Source: Prorocentrum cordatum
Taxonomy: Eukaryota; Sar; Dinophyceae; Prorocentrales; Prorocentraceae
Assembly: GCA_963575745.1 (NCBI GenBank)
Contig: CAUYUJ010003046.1
Location: forward strand, 18,726 to 82,725
Reading direction: 5' to 3'
DNA length: 64,000 bases
Shown here: positions 9,940 to 62,572 of the stretch, one piece after another
Numbering within the stretch: position 1 is the stretch's first letter
Layout of the letters: the number at the start of each line of letters is the position of its first letter
Position numbers and translations under genes: made by a program
The notes under the pieces: model-generated
What the model was told of the DNA's origin: nothing
Seen by the model: only the letters and a program-made list of their open reading frames with translations
Database searches by the model: none

Positions 9940-10880
9940 ATCGAAGACGCCTACGGCGAATCACCGCCGCCCCCTGCCTGTTTGGAAGCGCCTATGTGGC
10001 CGAACGTTGAGGCCAGACCTGCCAAGCTATCGGACCACGTGTTCCCCGAATCGGTTTGGAAAGCCTTCGGGGAACACGTGGGCATCTTGAAGGTCATCTT
10101 GGCCGTCTTGGAGGCCTCTTGGGCAAGCTTTGGGCGATCTTTGGGGCTTTTTGGGCCGTCTCGGGCCAGCTTCGAGCCAACTTCGGCCATCTTGGTGGGT
10201 TCCTGGCACGTCTGAAGCCGTCGGAAGCCGTTTGGGGGGCCTCTATGGGCCGACTTGGGGCCCGCTTGGAATGCTCCAGGGCCGTCTTGGAGGCCATCTT
10301 GGGCGTCTGGGAGGCCATCTTGGGCGTGTTGGAGGCCTCTTGGGCCCTCTTGGGGCCCTCTAGGGGCCATCTTGGAGGCCACTTGGGCCATCATGGGGCT
10401 CTCTTGGGGGCCTCTTGGGCGATCTTGGGGGCTTCTTGGGCCGTCTTGAGCCGTCGGAGAGCCGAAAAGGCGCAAATGCCAAAATCCTTCAAAAACCAAG
10501 GGAAAATCAATGATTTTGGCCTCTTCGGACTCTCCTGGAGGACCTCTTGGAGGCCTCTTGGGCCGTCTGGGAGGCCTCTGGGGGGCCTCTTGGGCCGTCT
10601 TGGGCCGTCTTGGACTCTCTTGGGCCGTTTTGGAGGCCGTCTTGGACCATCTCGGGCGGACTTGGAGGCCATCTTGGGCCATCTTCGCGATTTTTTTAGG
10701 ATGTCCCGAGCGAAACGGCCGTTTTTGGGCATTGACAGATGGGTTTTATGAGATTTACGGGTGGCCGGCGGGACGGGCCGAAGCCCACTGGGGAGTTCTT
10801 TTAGAAAAAGAACCAAAACCAAAACCTGAATCGTCCAGCACGCCGTGCACCCCTGCAAGCAGGGGGCGGCGGATGTAGTA
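9940..10880 (+). mobile_element. Composite CTTGG repeat, full copy 1
   Basis: Blocks in order: ATCGAAGACGCCTAC and CCGCCGCCCCCTG; GCCTATGTGGCCGAACGTTG; the perfect 15-bp hairpin CACGTGTTCCCCGAA at 10036-10050 pairing with 10066-10080; degenerate CTTGGGGCC units; an AT-rich block (10450-10540, CAAAATCCTTCAAAAACCAA); more CTTGG units; GCCGGCGGGACGGGCC; the hairpin GTTCTTTT/AAAAGAAC (10795-10813) followed by CCAAAACCAAAACC; and a GGGGGCGGCGG end that is the inverse of the start. No real ORF. Confidence 0.75.
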
Positions 10881-19607: not shown

Positions 19608-22600
19608 GAGGAGATTTGCGCTGCACTCACTCTCTTCGCCTGGCGGGCCAAGTTTTTGTGCCCCAGTGAAGTTTCAGCCCCCTGTGGTCCTTGGGGTGAA
19701 ATTAGGTGGCCCGGGGGCGCCGTTGTGGAACACTCTACTTGGACCCAGGCCTATCCCTCTTGCGAGCCCCCTGCTGTGTCCAACAGTAATGTCCGTGCTG
19801 GCCGTCCCAGTAGGAGAGGGCTGATTTCAGCGGTGAAGGACGCCCTCGCTAGATGCCAGGGACTCCTTCGCCAAGGTTTTGAACTTTTTGTGAGCTCCCT
19901 TGGAGCCGATCCCGCCCCTTTGATCACCTCGTCGGGAACCCTTCGCACCCTTCGAGAGCCCCTTTCGGGAGCCCGGCAAAAGCTCACCCAAGGGGTCACA
20001 GTTGTTTCTAAGTTTTTAAATGCTCAGGATACGCGAGTTTATGCTCCCACCATGGAAATGTCTGTGTGCGCGTCTAGGGTTAGGGACCTCACGGGCCCTA
20101 GGCAGCCTCCTGGTGGTAAGCACTCTGGGACCGCTCTCCTCGAGCCCATGGATCCTGATCAGTTCCCTGCCGACGCGTTCCAGCCCATCGTGGAAACGTG
20201 CAACGTGTCAGGGTGGGGCTCTGCACAGCGCTGGCTGCAGCGGACCCCTGCACACATCGTGCTGATGCAAGAGCACCACATCTCCGATGACCAGCTCGCC
20301 TCAGCACCCTCTTGGAGCATTAGAAACGGATGGAAGTCCCTTTTCCTACCTGCCGACAAAGGGCCACACGGAGGGCCTTCTGCAGGTGTAGCCATCCTCG
20401 TTCGTTCTGGCCTAGGCCTACTCGCGCTGCAGAGTGGCATGGATGTCGCGAAGCACCGTGCGATTGCGGGGGTGGTCGACCTTCCCGACGGCACCCAGAT
20501 TTTGTGCGTGCCCCTCTACCTCAGAGACTGCGAAGGCTTATCGGATGCGAACCTGTACCTCCTCTCTCGGACGGGTTCTTTGATTGGCTCCATGGGGTGC
20601 CTTGTCATCATTGGAGGGGATTTCAACATGACCCCGTCGGTCGTCGTCCAGTCGCACCTCGGGGACTCGCTTGGGCAGTGGATGATACCAGGTGACACTA
20701 CTTGCAATTCGGTCGCAGGTCCCAAGGTGTATGATTATTGTTTTTGTTTCGCCTGGGCTCAGCAAAGGGGTTGCTAGGGTGTCGGTGCGGCAGGATAGTG
20801 ATTTGTCCCCCCACTCGCCTGTGCGCTTGACCCTCCGCCCCTCCCTGAGCAAGTTGCAAGCTCTCAGCTTCCGTAACCCCCCTAAGTTGTCCTCCTTTCC
20901 GCTCCCCCCCGTCTGCAGGATCGACCCCGTCCCTGCTTTGCGCCCCGCCGTCGCCCGTGCGTTGGATGAAGCTCGGATTGCGGTGGGCAGGGGGGACTTT
21001 GACGTCGTCCAGTCTTCCGTGGACCAGTTGCATCGGCTCTGGGCGGACCAGGCCGAGGCGGAAGTGGCCATTGCTACTGGCGCCCAGATCCCGTTCCGTG
21101 GGGCCCGTGGGAAGGCCCTTTCTCTCAGATGGAAGGACATCCTGACCCCCGACACCCAGAGCCCTAAGCAGCCCATCTTGTTTGCACATAGGTGGCTAAA
21201 CTCTCAGTCGCAGAGGCTTGGGCTCCACTGGGGAGCCAGTGATCGTGCAGGTGTTGCTTCTGTGCTACATGTTCTGCGCACCCCTGTCGGGGCCATAGCC
21301 AGCGGCCTGGATGCTAGCCCCCGCCTGCCCCCGTACCCCGTCGAGGTCGGGGGCGTCATGCTCGACGCTCTGGAGGTGCGCGAGCAGACTTCTCGCCAGG
21401 GGGATTCACCTAAACGGCGACGTCATGACGGTGCTCCTGGGGATGCGGCTCCAGGAGCGCGCTTTTCGGTCATTTCTCGAGATTTTGCATGCTGGCGCGA
21501 TACTTTTAATGGCAGCATGCAGGAAGTCGAGTGCGACGCCAGGAAGGCGGCCTCGGCTGAATGGAGAGACTGGGTGCTGGAGAAGGCGGACCAAGGGGCG
21601 AGGAAAATTCATATGGTCTCGAAGGGGGCCACTCCTTGGAGGCCTACCACCACCTTGGCCAGGGACGGTGTTTTGGTTGCTGACCCCTTGTCCCTCCTTC
21701 GTGCCGAAAGCCAGCGTTTCTCTGGCCTCTGGGGTGACGGAAAGGCCCGCCCGTGGCTTCCCAGGTGGATTTTGTCTCCTGCTCTGCCCGAGTTTAGGCC
21801 CGAAGATATCCGTGCGGTCTCCAAAGGCTTTCGAGAGCGCACCGCGGTTTCGGTGGATGGATTTCATATGAAGCACTTTGCTATGATGTCAGACGCCAGT
21901 CTCAGCCTCCTGTGTGACATCTTAGGTTTGATGGAGAGATCGGCTGTCATCCCCATGCAAATTTCCATCATTATCATGGCCCTGATTGCTAAACCGTCGT
22001 CGGGTTTCCGTCCTATCGGCATCTTCTGCAGCGTGTTCAGGTTGTATGGCAAGCTTCGCCGATCCCTCGCCGACAAATGGGAAGCTAGATTCACGCGTGA
22101 GTTTTTCTGTGCTGGCCCGTTTGAAGGGGCGCAGGACGTCGTGTGGCGCCAAGCCTGCAATGCCGAGGCCAACACCGCGCAAGGGATGGAATGTGCCACT
22201 CTGTTAACTGACCTGTACAAGTACTACGAGGCCCTGGACCTCCAGGTCCTGGCCCTCCGTGCTCACCAGGTTGGCTTTCCTGTTGGCATATCGTACCTGT
22301 GCATTGCCATGCGCTCCCAGGCCAGGTTCCTGTCCGTGGGGGGTTTCGTGGACGGGCCCTATTGGGCCTTGGCGGGGGTTGTGGCGGGGTGCCCCCTGGC
22401 CACGACCTTCATCAGGGCTAATGCTATTCAAGATTTGGACGCCCTCCGCCTCCCTCAGGCCGTCCAGTTCAAACTCTACATCGACGATGGAGGACTGTCG
22501 GCCACTGGTTCCTTCAAACAAGTTTTAAAGCGGCTACCTCAGGCCGCGGCGGACTGGCATGAAGCCCTCGTCCACGGAGTGGGCGCGGTCATCAGTAAGG

Positions 22601-24780
22601 AAAAGATGTCCTTAGTTTGCTCCTCGCGCCCCTTAGGCAAAGCCATCTCTCGGGCCCTCGGGGGTCTCGCGGGGCCGATTATGGACTCCGACTCGGCGAC
22701 CAATTTGGGAGTTGATTTTTGCTCTGGGAGGCCGTCCAGGGTTAGAGGGGGAAATTCTAAGGCTAAGGAAAGGTGTAGGAAGGCGAAAGACAGGACTGCT
22801 CGCCTGGTTAGAATGAGGCCCACCATGTCGGGCAAACGTGGTCGTAATGTCTTCGTGGCGGGTCCTCTCCCTGGGGCTGTCTACGGGCGCGAGATCTCTG
22901 GAGTTTCGGACCACGAGCTTCTCTCCCTCAGGCAGTTGGCTGGGAAGGCCCTGAAGCCTAGCGCTGGAGGTCGGTCTCTCACCGCTCTCATGTTGTGTCA
23001 CGGCGACCCGCCGTGGGTCGCCTCCATTGCCCCCGTCTATCGGTGGGCTAAAGAAGTCTGGACTACCCATCATCGCCTGTACCCCCATGCCCTCTCGTTC
23101 GCCACGCTGCGTTCGTCTTGGAACGCTGTTTTCTCGAGGCCCTCGGACCTCTGGAAGAGTGTCGCGGGCCCGATTAGTGCGATGGGGAAGTCTCTTGAGC
23201 GTATTTCGTGGTCCATGCCGTCCTTCACGGTTCTCCGTGATGATAAAGGAATCGGTGTTCACTTGACCCAGATCTCGCCCGCGATGGTCAGATCGTTGCT
23301 TGGGAGAGCGGTGCGTCGTACCCTCGAGTGGGATTTGGGAGCTAGGCACAACCTCGGGCGGGTTTGCACTGATGGGATCCTCAGTCACCTCGCCTCTCGG
23401 AAGATTTCGGCGTTCGAAAAAGGGTGTGTCCGCTCTCCCTTCTGTAATGCTATTTACACCAGGGCCAAGGCCAGGTCCCTGGGTTATGTTATTGATACCA
23501 CGTGTTCTCTTTGTGGAGACGGAGATGACACGATCCGTCACCGTCTCTGGCGTTGCTCTGCCTGTGAGGATCCCAGGACGGAGCTAATTTCAGCTAAGGT
23601 GCGGGAGTGGGCAGGCCAAGCGGACGACGCCCTGGCTTGCTACGGCCTATTCCCCCACCCAGCTGAGGCCCTACCTCAGCCGTCGTTCGAGGAGGGGGTC
23701 GTCACGGAGATTTGTGAGGGGTGCGAGCATTTGGTTTTCGAGCAAGACTTCGCTGGGCAGATTTTTGTGGATGGTTCCTGCCTACGGCATCCTGTGGGCG
23801 AGCTCTCTCGCGCTGGATGGGCCGTCGCGTTGCTCGACCCTTCCAACGTGCAGGAGATGATCAGGATTCGGGGCCCTGTTTGGCCTCCCTACCCCCAGAC
23901 CCCCCAGAGTGCTGAATACCACGCTTTTTGTGCTGCTGCCAGGTTTGTTGCCAATCATTCTACCATGCACTCTGACTGCCAGAATGTTGTAGAATATGCC
24001 AGTTTGGATTGGACCAAACAGACCAGCTACAAACGTTTCTACTCGGGGTGTGCCCAGTTCGTGCGTGATAACCTCCCTGCCATAATCACGAGCAAGGTGA
24101 AGGCTCACCAGAATGTTGACGAAGCGGCCGACGATAGAGACCGCTTCCTTCGAATTGGGAATAATTATGTGGATGCCGCAGCCAAGGTTGCTGCGGCCTC
24201 CCACCCACAGCCCAACAGGGAGCAGATTGAGGAGCTTGATAGGCAGTATGCAGTCGCTCGCGCTGTGGGATTGCTGGCTGCAAAGCTCCTCCCGCTATGG
24301 CCGCCTCTCGAGATGGGTCCTGAGGTCGTTCGTGAGGTCGTTTGTCGTGAGAGCGGTGCTGGCCTAGGGACAGCTGCAGCCGCTCCACACGTTTGGCAGC
24401 AGATAGGAGCCTTCTGGAGGTGCACTGTATGCTTGTGTGCTTCACGCGGGGTTCGGGCCCCGCCGCAGGAGCACGGCATTGGAGGTTGGTTTTGGCCTCC
24501 TCCGCCTGGCGCTTGCCCGCAACGCAGTAGACTTGATCCTGCGTTGTTTGCTGAGAAAGGGCATCGGTGCATCTCTCTCGAGTGCTCCGACTCGTCTCGT
24601 CTCATCGTGTGCCTGAGGTGCAAGGCCATCAGCGGGCAGCGTGCTATGAATTTGGCTCGCCAGTGCGCCGACCACCCCAGCAGTGCGGGTGCACGGCATT
24701 GCTGGCAGAGGATTTGCCGTGGCCTTCATCCAAAGAGTGATAGAGTCACGGTAGAGCGTGGACCCTGGTCGGAGCTTTAA
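19608..24780 (+). CDS. LINE ORF2: APE-type endonuclease, reverse transcriptase and RNase H polyprotein (one frameshift)
   Basis: ORF2 nicks the target, primes reverse transcription there and removes RNA. The frame is open from 19608; the first ATG is at 20052. Endonuclease: NVSG, QEHH (E at 20271), GGDFNM (20613-20630), VYDY, then PHSPV (H at 20812), matching the EEP-fold order. The frame shifts by one base at the T5 run 20741-20745, between VYDY and FVSPG. RT: FRPIG (~22005), motif A LLTDLYKYYEA (D at 22210), motif B AGCPLAT (Ala where Gln is usual before Gly), motif C YIDD (22477-22488). Zinc knuckle C-x2-C-x8-H-x4-C at 23503-23556. RNase H: D in FVDGSC (23770), E (23914), D (23974) and D (~24172), the full acidic set. 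The tail to TAA 24778-24780 has several C-x2-C pairs. One deleted or inserted T separates it from an intact ORF, so the copy is young or the break is a read error. Confidence 0.88.
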
Positions 24781-46707: not shown

Positions 46708-47360
46708 GGCGGGAGGAAGAGGAGGGGGCATCTTTGAAGGCTCTGGGGACACTCTTGGGGCCTCCTGGGAGCTTCCTGGGAGCCCCTTGGAGGCATCTTG
46801 GAGGCCTCCTCGGGCCTCTTGGGCCGTTCTGGGGCCATCTTGGCGGCCTCTTGGGCGATCTTGGGGCGATCTTTGCGGGCTCTTGGGACGTCTCGGGCCG
46901 TTTGTAGGCCGAGAATATGCAAATTCAAACAAATCTTTTAATAACCTAAGGAACGTGAATTTTGCCTCTTCGGGCCCTCCTGGAGGAGCTCAGTGATGCC
47001 TCTTGGGCTGTCTTGAAGGCCTCTGGGGGGCCTCTGGGGCCGCCTTGGCCTATCTTGGAGGCGTTTTTGGACGCACTTGCAGGTATGTTGGACCCTCTTG
47101 GGCCTTCTTGGAGGCCATCTTGGACCTTCTTGGGCGAACTTGGAAGCCATCTTGCCCTCTGGAGGATTTTTTCCGGACACTGAGGTCGTTTTTGCGGTTT
47201 TTGTGGTCGTTTATGTTTCTTTCCGCGTGGCTGGCGGGGCGGGCCGGAGTCCCAGGGGAGAGTTCTCTGGGAAAATGAGCCAACACCAAACCGCAAGGAG
47301 CCAGGACGCCAGGCACCCCTGCGATGAATCAACAGGGGGCGGCGGATCGAAGACGCCTCT
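46440..47360 (+). mobile_element. Composite CTTGG repeat, full copy 2
   Basis: Same block order as 9940-10880: CAGGGGGCGGCGG then inverse CCGCCGCCCCCTG 26 bp on; CATATGGCCGAGCGTTGG; an imperfect GTTCCCC hairpin (46580-46625); a GGA patch (46643-46728) absent from copy 1; CTTGG units; an AT block (46905-46985); CTTGG units; GGCTGGCGGGGCGGGCCGGA; GAGTTCTCTGGGAAAATGAG; and CAGGCACCCCTGCGATGAAT with GGGGGCGGCGG. Confidence 0.75.
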
Positions 47361-47790
47361 TGGGCCGTCTTCAGCCGTCGGAAAGCCAAGAAGCAGCGAA
47401 ATGAAAAATCCTTCAAACACCAAAGGAACATCAATCATTTTGGCCTCTTCGGGCCCTCCTGGAGGACCTCTTGGAAGCCTCTTGGGCCGTCTTGGAGGCG
47501 TCTATGGTGCTTCTTGGGCCGTTTCGAGCCATCTTGAGGCCATCTTAGGCCGTCTTGGGTGCATCTTGGGCCGTCTTGGAGGCCATTTTGTCCATCTGAG
47601 AGGCCATCTTGAGCCATCTGGAGCGAAGAAGCCGACGAGATCGGCACCCTGGCAGGACGCGCTGGAGCCCCAGGGGGAGTTCTTTTGGAAAAAGAACCAA
47701 AACCAAAACCGAAAGGATCTAGCACGCCAGGCACCCCTGCGATGAATCGATAGGGGAAGGCGGATCTGTGGGCCTTCGGCCCATCCCGCC
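47345..47790 (+). mobile_element. Composite CTTGG repeat, partial copy 3
   Basis: Directly follows copy 2. Has the AT block (AAATCCTTCAAACACCAAAG), CTTGG units, GAGTTCTTTTGGAAAAAGAA with CCAAAACCAAAACCG, and CAGGCACCCCTGCGATGAAT. It lacks the GTTCCCC hairpin. Confidence 0.75.
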
Positions 47791-59459: not shown

Positions 59460-60515
59460 CCGACCGAGTGCGCCGGGGCCAAGGTATCGGACCATGTGTT
59501 CCCCGAGTCGGTTTGGAAAGTGTTCGGGGAACACGGTGGGGGAGGAGGAAGGAGAGGAGATGGAGGAAGAAGGAAAAGGGAGGAGGAGGCCTCTTTGGAG
59601 CCTCTAGGGCTACTCTAGGGTTTTATTGGGCCATCTTTGCGGCCTTGGAGGCATCTTGGGACTGTCTTGGAAGCCATTTTGGGGCTGTATTGGGGCTTCT
59701 TGGGGCCATCTTTGGAGGCCTCCTTGGCCTTCTTGCGCGATGGCGCTGAAATTTATCATTTGCACAAACTTGGTGGGACAACGGACTGCATTGTTTACTC
59801 GGTGACCAGAAAATAGCATGAGGAAATAATCGGAGCCAGTCGATGGAGGCAGTGTTGGGTGCATCTTGGGCGTTGTTGGAGGCGGAGCTTGACCAAGCCA
59901 TCGGACCATGTATTCCCCGAGTCTCGCCTCGACACCTTCGGGGAACATTTGGGGGGAAAAGAGACGGAGAAGGAGAGGGGGGAAACAGCAGGAGGGAACA
60001 GGAAATTGTTGAAAGTTTCTTGGGGCACTTTTGGGCTTTGGGTGCTTTGTTGGAACTTCCTGTGGACCTTTTGAATGCTTCTCGGGAGGCCTCCTTGGCC
60101 TTCTTGGGGACCTCTGGGGACTCTTTGGGGGAGTCTTTGGTCGTCTTAGAGCGTTCCTGGCCCATCTGACGCCGTCCGAGACCGTCTTTGAGGCCTCTCG
60201 GAGCCGACTTCAGGCCCTCATGGGCCGTGTCAGGGCGGTCTTCGAGGCAGTCTAGGCGTCTTGGAGGCCTCTTGGGTCGTCTTGAGGCCTTCTTTGGACG
60301 AACTGGAGGCATCTTGGACTCTCTCGGGCCGTCTTGGAGGCCATCTTGGACCATCTTGGGCGGACTTGGAGGCCATCTTGGAGGCCATCTTGAGCCGTCT
60401 TGGGGGATTTTTCTGGGATTGAGCTCCTGGAGCTCCCTTTCGGGTAGCCGGCGGGACGGGCCGAAGCGCCAGGGGGAGTTCTTCTGGAAAAAGAACCAAT
60501 GCCAAAAGCGGAAGG
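59460..60515 (+). mobile_element. Composite CTTGG repeat, copy 4, interrupted by a gene
   Basis: GGCCAAGGTATCGGACCATG, the hairpin GTGTTCCCCGA (59496-59506 with 59524-59534), a GGA patch, CTTGG units and an AT block. A second hairpin ATGTATTCCCCGA pairs with TTCGGGGAACAT at 59937-59948. Then come CTTGG units (60010-60410), GCCGGCGGGACGGGCCGAAG and GAGTTCTTCTGGAAAAAGAA with CCAATGCCAAAAGCGGAAGG. At the point where other copies run into CACGCCAGGCACC, the spliced-leader-like word and gene follow instead. Confidence 0.7.
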
Positions 60516-60535
60516 TCCGAAGATTTTGGCTCAAG
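60516..60535 (+). other. Relict dinoflagellate spliced leader
   Basis: TCCGAAGATTTTGGCTCAAG. The last 13 bases equal the 3' end of the 22-base dinoflagellate spliced leader (from memory). The start TCCG also fits, with one substitution and a 2-base loss between. It lies 79 bases before the ATG of the FG-GAP gene. A genomic leader copy indicates that a trans-spliced mRNA was once reverse-transcribed and reinserted. Confidence 0.7.
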
Positions 60536-60614
60536 GTTCCGGCCTCCTAGGGCTCCACTCGGGCGTCTCTCGTTCCTCTCAGATTTTCAGCTGTGCACAT
60601 CTGCAGACGGCATA

Positions 60615-62288
60615 ATGCGCCTGCGCACGTCTCACAGCGTCGGCGCGCTGCTCCTGCTGCTGGCGGGTCCTGCTGCTGGCGGGTCGCAGGCGAGCGGGAC
60701 GCTGGCCCGCCCGAGGCTGGAGGCCTCGGCGAGCGGTCGCCCTCGCGAGCCGCAGGCCGAGTTCGGGATGCGCCAGGCTACCAGCGGCGCGCAGTTGTTG
60801 CTCAAGCTCTTGGCGAGTGATGGGGCTAATAACGACCTTTTCGGAGTCTCGGTGGCCGTGAGCTCCGACGGGGCCCGCGTGGTGGTGGGGGCCTACTATG
60901 ACGACGACCAGGGCACCAATTCTGGCTCCGTGCACGTGTTCGACGGTACCACCGGCGTGAGGCTGCTCAAGCTTGTGGCGAGTGATGGGGCTGATTACGA
61001 CGGTTTCGGATTCTCGGTGGCCGTAAGCTCCGACGGGGCCCGCGTGGTGGTGGGGGCCTACTATGACGACGACCAGGGCGACGATTCTGGCTCCGTGCAC
61101 GTGTTCGACGGTACCACCGGCGTGAGGCTGCTCAAGCTTGTGGCGAGTGATGGGGCTGATTACGACGGTTTCGGATTCTCGGTGGCCGTGAGCTCCGACG
61201 GGGCCCGCGTGGTGGTGGGGGCCTACTATGACGACGACCAGGGCGACGATTCTGGCTCCGTGCACGTGTTCGACGGTACCACCGGCGTGAGGCTGCTCAA
61301 GCTTCTGGCGAGTGATGGGGCTAATGACGACCTTTTCGGAGTCTCGGTGGCCGTGAGCTCCGACGGGGCCCGCGTGATAATGGGGGCCTACTATAACGAC
61401 GACTAGGGCAGCAACTCTGGCTCCGTGCACGTGTTCGACGGTACCACCGGCGCGAGGCTGCTCAAGCTTCTGGCGAGTGATGGGGCTGATTACGACTGTT
61501 TCGGATTCTCGGTGGCCGTGAGCTCCGACGGGGCCCGCGTGGTGGTGGGGGCCTACTATGACGACGTCCAGGGCAGCGTGCACGTGTTCGACGGTACCAC
61601 CGGCGAGAGGCTGCTCAAGCTTGTGGCGAGTGATGGGGCTAATAACGACTATTTCTGAAACTCGGTGGCCGTGAGCTCCGACGGGGCCCGCGTGGTGGTG
61701 GGGGCCTACTATGACGACGACCAGGGCAGCGTGCACGTGTTCGACGGTACCACCGGTGAGAGGCTACTCAAGCTTGTGGCGAGTGATGGGGCCGAGTCCG
61801 ACCGTTTCGGACGATCGGTGGCCGTGAGTTCCGACGGGGCCCGCGTGGTGGTGGGGGCCAGCCTTGCCGACAACGACGACGGCAGCAACTCTGGCTCCGT
61901 GCACGTGTTCGACGGCACCATCGCCACCACCAGGACGGCCACGAGTTCCGCGACGTCAAGCACTACTACTGAGACGACCAGTTCCGCGACGTCAAGCACT
62001 ACTACTGAGACGACCACCGCGACAACAACTGAGACGACCACCGCGACAACAACTGAGACGACCACCATCAAGACAACCACCGAGATAACGACCACCAAGA
62101 CGGCCACGACGACCATTGATACAGGCACGAGTTCGGCCACATCAAACACCACAGCCACCACCGAGCCAGGGGAAGTAATTCAAATTGCAGTCTTGATCTT
62201 GGCTGGTGCCTGGATCTTGTTCTTGGGCTACGCTGTCGCGCTGGGCTGCCTGGTGAGGCGCGGGCTTGTCAGGGGCCCAACACCCTAG
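60615..62288 (+). pseudogene. Seven-bladed FG-GAP-like beta-propeller membrane protein, two in-frame stops
   Basis: The role is likely extracellular adhesion or display; ligand unknown. The ATG at 60615 opens a signal peptide (SVGALLLLLAGPAAGG). Seven tandem units of 55, later 51, residues follow, starting at 60798, 60963, 61128, 61293, 61458, 61611 and 61764. Each holds LLKL-ASDGA, FG-SVAVSSDGARVVVGAYY and SGSVHVFDGTTG, the FG-GAP/integrin-type pattern with Asp-rich loops (YYDDDQG) that could bind calcium. Seven is the right number for a closed propeller. Then come a Thr/Ser-rich stalk (TTTETTTATTTE), a membrane helix (IAVLILAGAWILFLGYAVAL) and a short basic tail (VRRG), ending TAG 62286-62288. 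The frame is continuous for 557 codons except TAG at 61404 (blade 4, CAG in the others) and TGA at 61656 (blade 6, GGA in the others). Each is a one-base change. Blades 2 and 3 are nearly identical. No introns are needed. Confidence 0.8.
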
Positions 62289-62299
62289 CGCGGCATTCA

Positions 62300-62412
62300 C
62301 AAAGCCAGGCACCTCTCTGATGAATCAATCGGGGGCGGCGGAAAACGCCTATGTGGCCGAGAGTTGGGCCAGAGCTCGGCCAAGCTATTGGGCCAGAGCG
62401 CGGCCTTCCGCA
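62300..62412 (+). mobile_element. Right part of composite repeat copy 4
   Basis: GCCAGGCACCTCTCTGATGA, ATCAATCGGGGGCGGCGG, then AACGCCTATGTGGCCGAGAG and GCTCGGCCAAGCTATTGG. The first part continues the block order broken at about 60516, so the gene lies between two parts of one repeat. Confidence 0.65.
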
Positions 62413-62413
62413 T

Positions 62414-62572
62414 GAAGCCCTGGTCAGCTCCCCGCCAGGCGTTTTTCCGCAATCGGGGAAACATGTGACCTTCTGAGAGTTATCGGTGAAACTCTCACCA
62501 GTTTTGAAGCCCTGGTCAGCTCCCCGCCAGGCGTTTTTCCGCAATCGGGGAAGCATGCGAGACCTTCAGAGA
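62414..62572 (+). repeat. 92-bp direct duplication
   Basis: GAAGCCCTGGTCAGCTCCCC, GCCAGGCGTTTTTCCGCAAT and CGGGGAA occur at 62414 and 62506 with few changes. Between them GAGAGTT and AACTCTC can form a small stem. Confidence 0.85.

What the first reader, a model, noticed from the sequence alone, without database searches (positions are those of the whole stretch)
60440..62412. FG-GAP gene inserted inside a composite repeat, with a spliced-leader relict at its 5' edge
In the copies at 9940 and 47345 (and, more loosely, 46440) the hairpin tail (GAGTTCTTTTGGAAAAAGAA, CCAAAACC) runs directly into CCAGGCACCCCTGCGATG. Here the first block ends at about 60515 and the second resumes at about 62300. 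Between them are a spliced-leader-like word, 79 bases of leader, an intronless ORF and its stop. That is what insertion of a reverse-transcribed, trans-spliced mRNA into a repeat would leave. The stop TAG may even come from the target (the uninterrupted copy at 47345 reads ATCTAGCACG), which would mean the inserted copy lost its own 3' end. Leader-tagged retrocopies are known in dinoflagellates; a membrane beta-propeller retrocopy caught inside a defined target repeat is not something I can recall.
Basis: partly seen in the sequence, partly recalled or inferred. Interest (0 to 1): 0.85.

Follow-up and report, generated by a model that had tools for sequence, protein, structure and literature searches.

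The report
Duplicated, decayed copy of a retrogene
A dinoflagellate messenger RNA was once copied back into DNA inside a repeated sequence; the filled repeat was later duplicated to many places in the genome, and this window holds one broken, shortened descendant.

Summary
A repeat of about 130 bp, uninterrupted at 10755, 47221 and 47642, is split at 60515/62304 by a spliced-leader relict, a 79-base leader and an FG-GAP coding region.

The host genome settles the history. One search gave 40 places for this gene. In 22 of 40 the same repeat is split at the same base and followed by a 19-20/22 DinoSL relict. Four of 21 loci fetched with long flanks keep the original 3' end: an A-rich run, an imperfect 8-bp target repeat, then the rest of the repeat. 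So a trans-spliced mRNA did insert, most likely once, in an ancestor. The filled site then spread as DNA: 14 loci share 93-99.6% of 459 bp upstream. The window copy belongs to a branch (12 of 21) that lost about 600 bp at the 3' end, and is a pseudogene.

SL-tagged retrogenes are known. A side result may matter more: 37 of 60 sampled SL words directly follow homopurine or homopyrimidine tracts.

The parts
60438..60515 (+). Left half of the composite repeat (model positions 1 to about 78), ending ...AAAAGCGGAAGG at the breakpoint
   Evidence: nhmmer with a model of three uninterrupted window copies, E 3e-16; same breakpoint in 22 of 40 places
60516..60535 (+). DinoSL relict TCCGAAGATTTTGGCTCAAG (2-nt deletion shared with L010 and L026); its first TCC could equally be target sequence
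   Evidence: 19/22 identical to DinoSL; several sister loci keep 22-nt forms at 20/22
60536..60614 (+). 79-base 5' untranslated leader, shared with paralogues
   Evidence: parts of it are translated upstream of the ATG in annotated proteins P0013 and P0072
60615..62303 (+). FG-GAP_2 pseudogene: N-terminal hydrophobic stretch, seven FG-GAP units, Ser/Thr-rich stalk, C-terminal hydrophobic segment; in-frame TAG 61404-61406 and TGA 61656-61658; subfamily stop TAG 62286-62288
   Evidence: Pfam PF14312, translation, tandem repeats; TAG in 12 of 12 shortened loci
62304..62306 (+). 3' deletion joint: 2-3 nt of microhomology (GC/GCC) where gene and repeat meet; about 600 bp lost relative to L018 (4468 to 5077)
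   Evidence: P0035 C-terminus crosses the joint at 100% over 16 residues
62304..62342 (+). Right half of the composite repeat (GCCAGGCACC...GGGGGCGGCGG); sequence shared with several loci runs on to about 62396
   Evidence: nhmmer E 2e-6
59478..60437 (+). Upstream flank duplicated together with the filled repeat in many loci
   Evidence: 94-99% identical over 59478-60514 to L010, L011, L013, L015, L016, L017, L026; L012 matches in two pieces (96% and 85%)
10755..10874 (+). Uninterrupted copy of the repeat (empty target)
47221..47348 (+). Uninterrupted copy of the repeat (empty target)
47642..47767 (+). Uninterrupted copy of the repeat (empty target); the copy that reads ATCTAGCACG

Best explanation
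In an ancestor of this Prorocentrum genome a DinoSL-trans-spliced FG-GAP mRNA was reverse transcribed and inserted once into one copy of the composite repeat. It left the SL at its 5' end and, at its 3' end, an A-rich run and a short target site duplication. This is most simply target-primed reverse transcription by a LINE-type enzyme. The filled repeat then multiplied as DNA, together with 0.5-1 kb or more of flank, until at least 22 places carry it (some near-identical pairs may be haplotypes or assembly duplicates). One branch lost about 600 bp between two GC(C) words: the last codons, the 3'UTR, the A-rich run and the right-hand target duplication. The window locus is a decaying member of that branch. 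Shown here: the split repeat, the SL relict, the shared breakpoint, the A-rich run and imperfect target repeat in four loci, the shared flanks, the shortened branch, and the stops. Inferred: a single founding event, LINE-type machinery, and that the A-rich run is a poly(A) tail.
For: Split repeat. SL relict directly at the breakpoint in 22 of 40 places, 19-20 of 22 identical to DinoSL. In L018, L023, L024 and L025 the 3' side reads A-rich run, then GCGGAATG (ACGGAATG in L023), then ATTCAGCACGCC, against GCGGAAGG (GCGGATGG in L024) on the left: 7 of 8 identical in L018 and L025, 6 of 8 in L023 and L024. 459 bp of upstream flank is 93.0-99.6% identical to the window in 14 loci (L010, L011, L013-L019, L021, L022, L024-L026), 78-79% in L027 and L028, about 95% over the first 238 bp in L012, and not recovered in place in L009, L020 and L023. 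In the FastTree of the C-terminal segment nine of the 11 loci with the exact shortened joint, plus L014 with a variant of that joint, form one clade (local support 0.994); L015 and L016 entered that tree with their second, longer C-terminus and fall elsewhere. L047 carries its own relict TCCGCGGCCATTTTGGCTCCAG (19/22), then 15 nt ending CACAG, then the leader GTTCCGAGG. The leader thus starts exactly after an AG, as a trans-splice acceptor predicts.
Against: The target duplication is short and imperfect and not visible at the window locus. The A-rich run may belong to a longer A-rich target duplication: a local alignment of the two sides matched mainly the A-runs; it was reached by 8 of 80 control windows in L018 and by 0 of 80 in each of L023, L024 and L025, and it does not tell the two readings apart. 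Of 21 loci fetched with long flanks, four (L019, L021, L022, L028) have other, rearranged 3' ends and one (L027) runs into Ns. Ten of the 40 places carry only CAATTTTGGCTCAAG after a different flank, and their relation to the founder is unsettled. No parent without an SL or with introns was found.
Confidence: 0.85

Rival explanations
1. One reading: the window locus is itself the single insertion of a retrocopy into one repeat copy, and the TAG comes from the target.
For: Both repeat halves and an SL word lie at the breakpoint here.
Against: The same breakpoint and relict exist at 21 other places, many with the same flank; the TAG is a gene codon present in 12 of 12 shortened loci; no A-rich run or target duplication here.
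Confidence: 0.03
2. Site-specific retroposition: the same mRNA family inserted many times, independently, at this one base of many repeat copies (R2-like targeting).
For: 22 insertions at the identical base of a multicopy repeat; flanks of L027 and L028 are only 78-79% identical to the window.
Against: Flanks outside the repeat are 93-99.6% identical in 14 loci, while other repeat copies in the window match its halves at about 73-85%. None of 80 other SL words fetched lies in this repeat (0 of 20 below E 1, chosen with GG before the SL; 0 of 60 at E 0.1 or below).
Confidence: 0.05
3. The composite repeat is itself a mobile element that captured the retrocopy and moves it as cargo.
For: The filled repeat is dispersed over many contigs; uninterrupted copies recur about 1.05-1.17 kb apart upstream of several loci.
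Against: Shared sequence runs beyond the repeat upstream (to 59478) and ends at different points downstream (62356, 62383, 62396, 62456, 63484). Terminal repeats and a duplication around the whole unit were not tested.
Confidence: 0.1
4. The SL-like word is chance and the gene reached the repeat by an ordinary DNA rearrangement.
For: 5 of 100 shuffles of the window reach the score of the window's own relict.
Against: Several sister loci have 20/22 relicts at the same base; in L047 the leader starts at the same base after an AG.
Confidence: 0.02

Closest known systems
DinoSL-tagged retrogenes of dinoflagellates (reviewed in PMC6050394, parts 1-2 of 3 read; PMC12014239, passages seen; first described by Slamovits and Keeling 2008, not read)
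   Same: A genomic DinoSL relict 50-100 bp upstream of a coding region; high copy number; relicts truncated or in tandem in some members
   Different: Here the target sequence is identified from empty copies, a 3' A-rich run and an imperfect target repeat survive in sister loci, and many copies arose afterwards by DNA duplication. The window copy is a pseudogene. The term 'target site duplication' occurs 0 times in either paper
LINE-1-type processed pseudogenes (general knowledge, recalled)
   Same: A-rich run plus short target duplication; copied from a processed mRNA
   Different: Carries a spliced leader; mediator not shown; duplication only about 8 bp and 6-7 of 8 identical
FG-GAP_2 (PF14312) proteins of Prorocentrum cordatum and many bacteria
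   Same: Repeated FG-GAP units; Prorocentrum proteins share the N-terminal stretch, Ser/Thr stalk and C-terminal hydrophobic segment
   Different: Window copy has two stops and lacks the normal C-terminus

Membership tests
DinoSL-tagged retrocopy | DinoSL or relict directly upstream of the 5'UTR | tested here: met
   19/22 in the window; 19-20/22 in all 22 places with the split repeat
DinoSL-tagged retrocopy | Target site duplication | tested here: inconclusive
   Absent at the window (3' end deleted); imperfect 8-bp repeat in four sister loci: 7/8 in L018 and L025, 6/8 in L023 and L024
DinoSL-tagged retrocopy | Poly(A) tail | tested here: inconclusive
   A-rich run of 9-13 nt in four sister loci, uninterrupted only in L018; may be target sequence; absent in the window
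DinoSL-tagged retrocopy | Intron-containing or SL-less parent gene | tested here: inconclusive
   None seen among the 40 places, most read only in part; L047 lacks the founder's relict but has an older one
Functional retrogene | Open reading frame | tested here: not met
   Two in-frame stops
FG-GAP_2 repeat proteins (PF14312) | Pfam match above the curated cut-off | tested here: met
   191 bits against a cut-off of 23
Transposon cargo | Fixed unit ends shared by all copies | tested here: not met
   Downstream ends differ between loci
Transposon cargo | Terminal repeats or a target duplication around the whole unit | not tested
   -

The most novel reading that the evidence does not exclude
SL-led cDNAs in this dinoflagellate integrate preferentially at the 3' edge of polypurine/polypyrimidine simple-sequence tracts, with the 5' end of the SL at the edge. 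In a sample of 60 exact SL words, 37 directly follow such a tract and none precede one. The FG-GAP founder would be an ancient case in a defined target; its left flank is purine-rich (0.77-0.83 of 30 nt) but below the 0.9 threshold used for the 60 words (0 of 21 loci reach it). If true, dinoflagellate retroposition would be tied to a specific target structure. (Lowered from 0.35 to 0.3 after that check.)
Probability: 0.3. Interest if true: 0.7.

Novelty: new member of a known kind. Interest (0 to 1): 0.5.

Why it matters
A 2018 review says it is unknown which kind of retroelement mediates dinoflagellate retroposition and favours LTR elements (PMC6050394). Here empty and filled versions of one target can be compared, and the SL at the breakpoint, the A-rich run and the imperfect target repeat point to target-primed (LINE-type) insertion. 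The locus also shows that copy numbers of SL-tagged genes can rise by later DNA duplication, so counting SL relicts can overcount retroposition events.

Tried and rejected
Rejected: TAG from the target; a second, decayed SL upstream of the CAATTTT relict in L029/L030/L032 (score reached by 627 of 2000 shuffles and at 124 of 600 flank positions); the idea that the shared GCA form of the relict proves that the L029 group descends from the repeat-borne lineage, because ten other SL words with that form appear in the capped list and the ten fetched lie outside the repeat.

Led nowhere: Rfam on the window at gathering thresholds (0 matches); three scans of viral contigs (no relatives); protein search with the frame across the 5' junction (none of 45 candidates scored); PDB search with the LINE-like ORF (none). 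The pooled pN/pS of the N-terminal stretch (0.78, 11 loci) mixes intact and broken copies and says little.

Not answered in time: counts of the GCA form, of the repeat, of the filled junction and of the right-hand target word.

Full report
WHERE IT IS. The window is G000:C3046:18726-82725 of a genome of 4.13 Gb in 21,875 contigs. Its FG-GAP relatives include many proteins annotated as Prorocentrum cordatum.

THE OBSERVATION. A model of the composite repeat built only from the three uninterrupted window copies (10755-10874, 47221-47348, 47642-47767) matches the two sides of the insert with positions 1-81 and 80-126. The insert begins with an SL-like word, 19 of 22 identical to DinoSL with a 2-nt gap, followed by 79 bases of leader and an FG-GAP coding region. 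In 64 kb the word alone is only moderately unlikely (5 of 100 shuffles). The ORF has an in-frame TAG at 61404 and TGA at 61656.

THE FAMILY. One search of the genome with the window segment gave 67 match rows, which I count as 40 distinct places on 39 contigs (only the best candidates are scored, so this is a lower bound). I looked at the 5' side of all 40 where sequence was available: 20 with long flanks, 4 shorter, 14 short, one more and the window. Twenty-two carry the left half of the repeat, ending ...GG, directly followed by a 19-20/22 DinoSL relict (in L033, L034 and L046 the repeat was recognised by eye). Ten have a different upstream flank and the relict cut to CAATTTTGGCTCAAG (L039 with one further change; L030 and L038 with another). 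Of the remaining eight, two lack the 5' part (L009, L020), two run into N gaps (L042, L044), L031 has no relict, L045 has the second flank but no relict, L049 starts inside the gene, and L043 (refetched as L047) has an older relict set 15 nt further upstream. Some near-identical pairs (L015 with L016, L021 with L022) could be haplotypes or assembly duplicates.

THE FOUNDING INSERTION. In L018, L023, L024 and L025, 4 of 21 loci fetched with long flanks, the 3' end survives...GGTCGCGG, an A-rich run of 9-13 nt (pure in L018, with one G in the others), then GCGGAATG (ACGGAATG in L023), then ATTCAGCACGCC, which is the right half of the repeat. Aligned with 18 uninterrupted copies (15 in the fetched loci and 3 in the window), the left and right halves overlap by the columns GCGGAAGG / GCGGAATG (L024 reads GCGGATGG on the left). 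That overlap is a target site duplication of about 8 bp, 7 of 8 identical in L018 and L025 and 6 of 8 in L023 and L024. The A-rich run could be a poly(A) tail or the A-rich end of a longer duplication; the test did not decide (controls reaching the score: 8 of 80 in L018, 0 of 80 in the other three). L047 shows the leader beginning at the same base after ...GCACAG, as expected if SL was joined at that AG. L047's own relict, 19 of 22, hints at an earlier round of retroposition.

SPREAD AND DECAY. 459 bp upstream of the breakpoint are 93.0-99.6% identical between the window and 14 loci; L027 and L028 reach only 78-79% and L012 about 95% over half of it. About 1 kb (59478-60514) is shared with eight loci, L012 in two pieces. 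This reaches well beyond the repeat and speaks strongly against independent insertion for those loci. Downstream, shared sequence ends at different points, which speaks against a transposon with fixed ends. Eleven of 21 loci (window, L009-L013, L015-L017, L020, L026) have the same shortened 3' joint, C[A/G]CAAAGCCAGGC; a twelfth, L014, has the joint with a further loss inside the repeat. All twelve read TAG at the stop. Relative to L018 about 600 bp are missing. The joint is also read through in the annotated protein P0035. L015 and L016 carry both a longer and the shortened C-terminus, so they are chimaeras. Of the other nine, four keep the full end, four are rearranged (L019, L021, L022, L028) and L027 is unreadable (Ns). 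All eight members of the shortened branch with a visible start codon have an early stop or frame change (L010-L014, L017, L026, window), whereas L019, L021 and L022 read to 523-542 codons.

FUNCTION. The window copy itself probably makes no such protein.

KNOWN OR NEW. DinoSL-tagged retrogenes are well described (PMC6050394, parts 1-2 of 3 read; PMC12014239, PMC11453091 and PMC10666404, passages only). Searches for target duplications in dinoflagellate retrogenes, for Prorocentrum with FG-GAP (0 papers), and for SL with microsatellites or short interspersed elements listed no paper that by title or start of abstract reports what is described here; most listed papers were not opened, and subscription papers are not held.

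A SIDE RESULT. The genome holds 14,218 exact 21-nt DinoSL words, against 0 for the reversed pattern. I fetched 60 of the first 61 places in that list (contigs C1-C46; the one left out had been fetched earlier as L060), so this is not a random sample. Thirty-seven of 60 have at least 27 of the 30 upstream bases purine (11) or pyrimidine (26), mostly (GGA)n or (TCC)n; 0 of 60 have this downstream; the window baseline is 4.3%. Several sites share downstream sequence and three are near-identical, so the binomial value printed there overstates significance. None of the 60 lies in the composite repeat at E 0.1. The FG-GAP founder's own left flank is purine-rich but does not reach the threshold in any of 21 loci. 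This pattern deserves its own study.

Noticed in passing
G000, sampled loci L070-L129 (and L050-L069): Exact DinoSL words are very common (14,218 in the assembly), and 37 of 60 sampled directly follow a homopurine or homopyrimidine tract such as (GGA)n or (TCC)n; 0 of 60 have one downstream.
   Followed up: partly
L051, L053, L059, L060, L061, L063, L068, L080: A short SL-led repeat: SL followed by GCTAAACGT...GATTAGCTTTGG or a close variant, then unlike sequence.
   Followed up: no
L073, L094, L099, L100, L116, L127, L066: Tandem SL relicts, SL followed directly by (G)CCATTTTGGCTCAAG, as expected of sequences retroposed more than once.
   Followed up: no
L029, L030, L032, L035-L041: Ten places carry the FG-GAP gene after a different flank (GGGGCTGGTCG) with the relict cut to CAATTTTGGCTCAAG (small changes in three), the form expected if its first seven bases were replaced by splicing; no upstream SL was detectable.
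   Followed up: partly
window 20052-24780: LINE-like unit: endonuclease domain (PF03372, E 7e-8) followed by a long ORF with weak zf-RVT (E 0.03) and RNase H (E 0.001) matches; no reverse transcriptase match.
   Followed up: partly
window 62413-62460 and 62505-62552: Perfect 48-bp direct repeat just downstream of the composite repeat.
   Followed up: no
L010, L012, L015, L016, L017, L026 upstream parts: Uninterrupted composite repeats recur about 1.05-1.17 kb apart upstream of the filled one, so the target seems to lie in a long-period tandem array.
   Followed up: no
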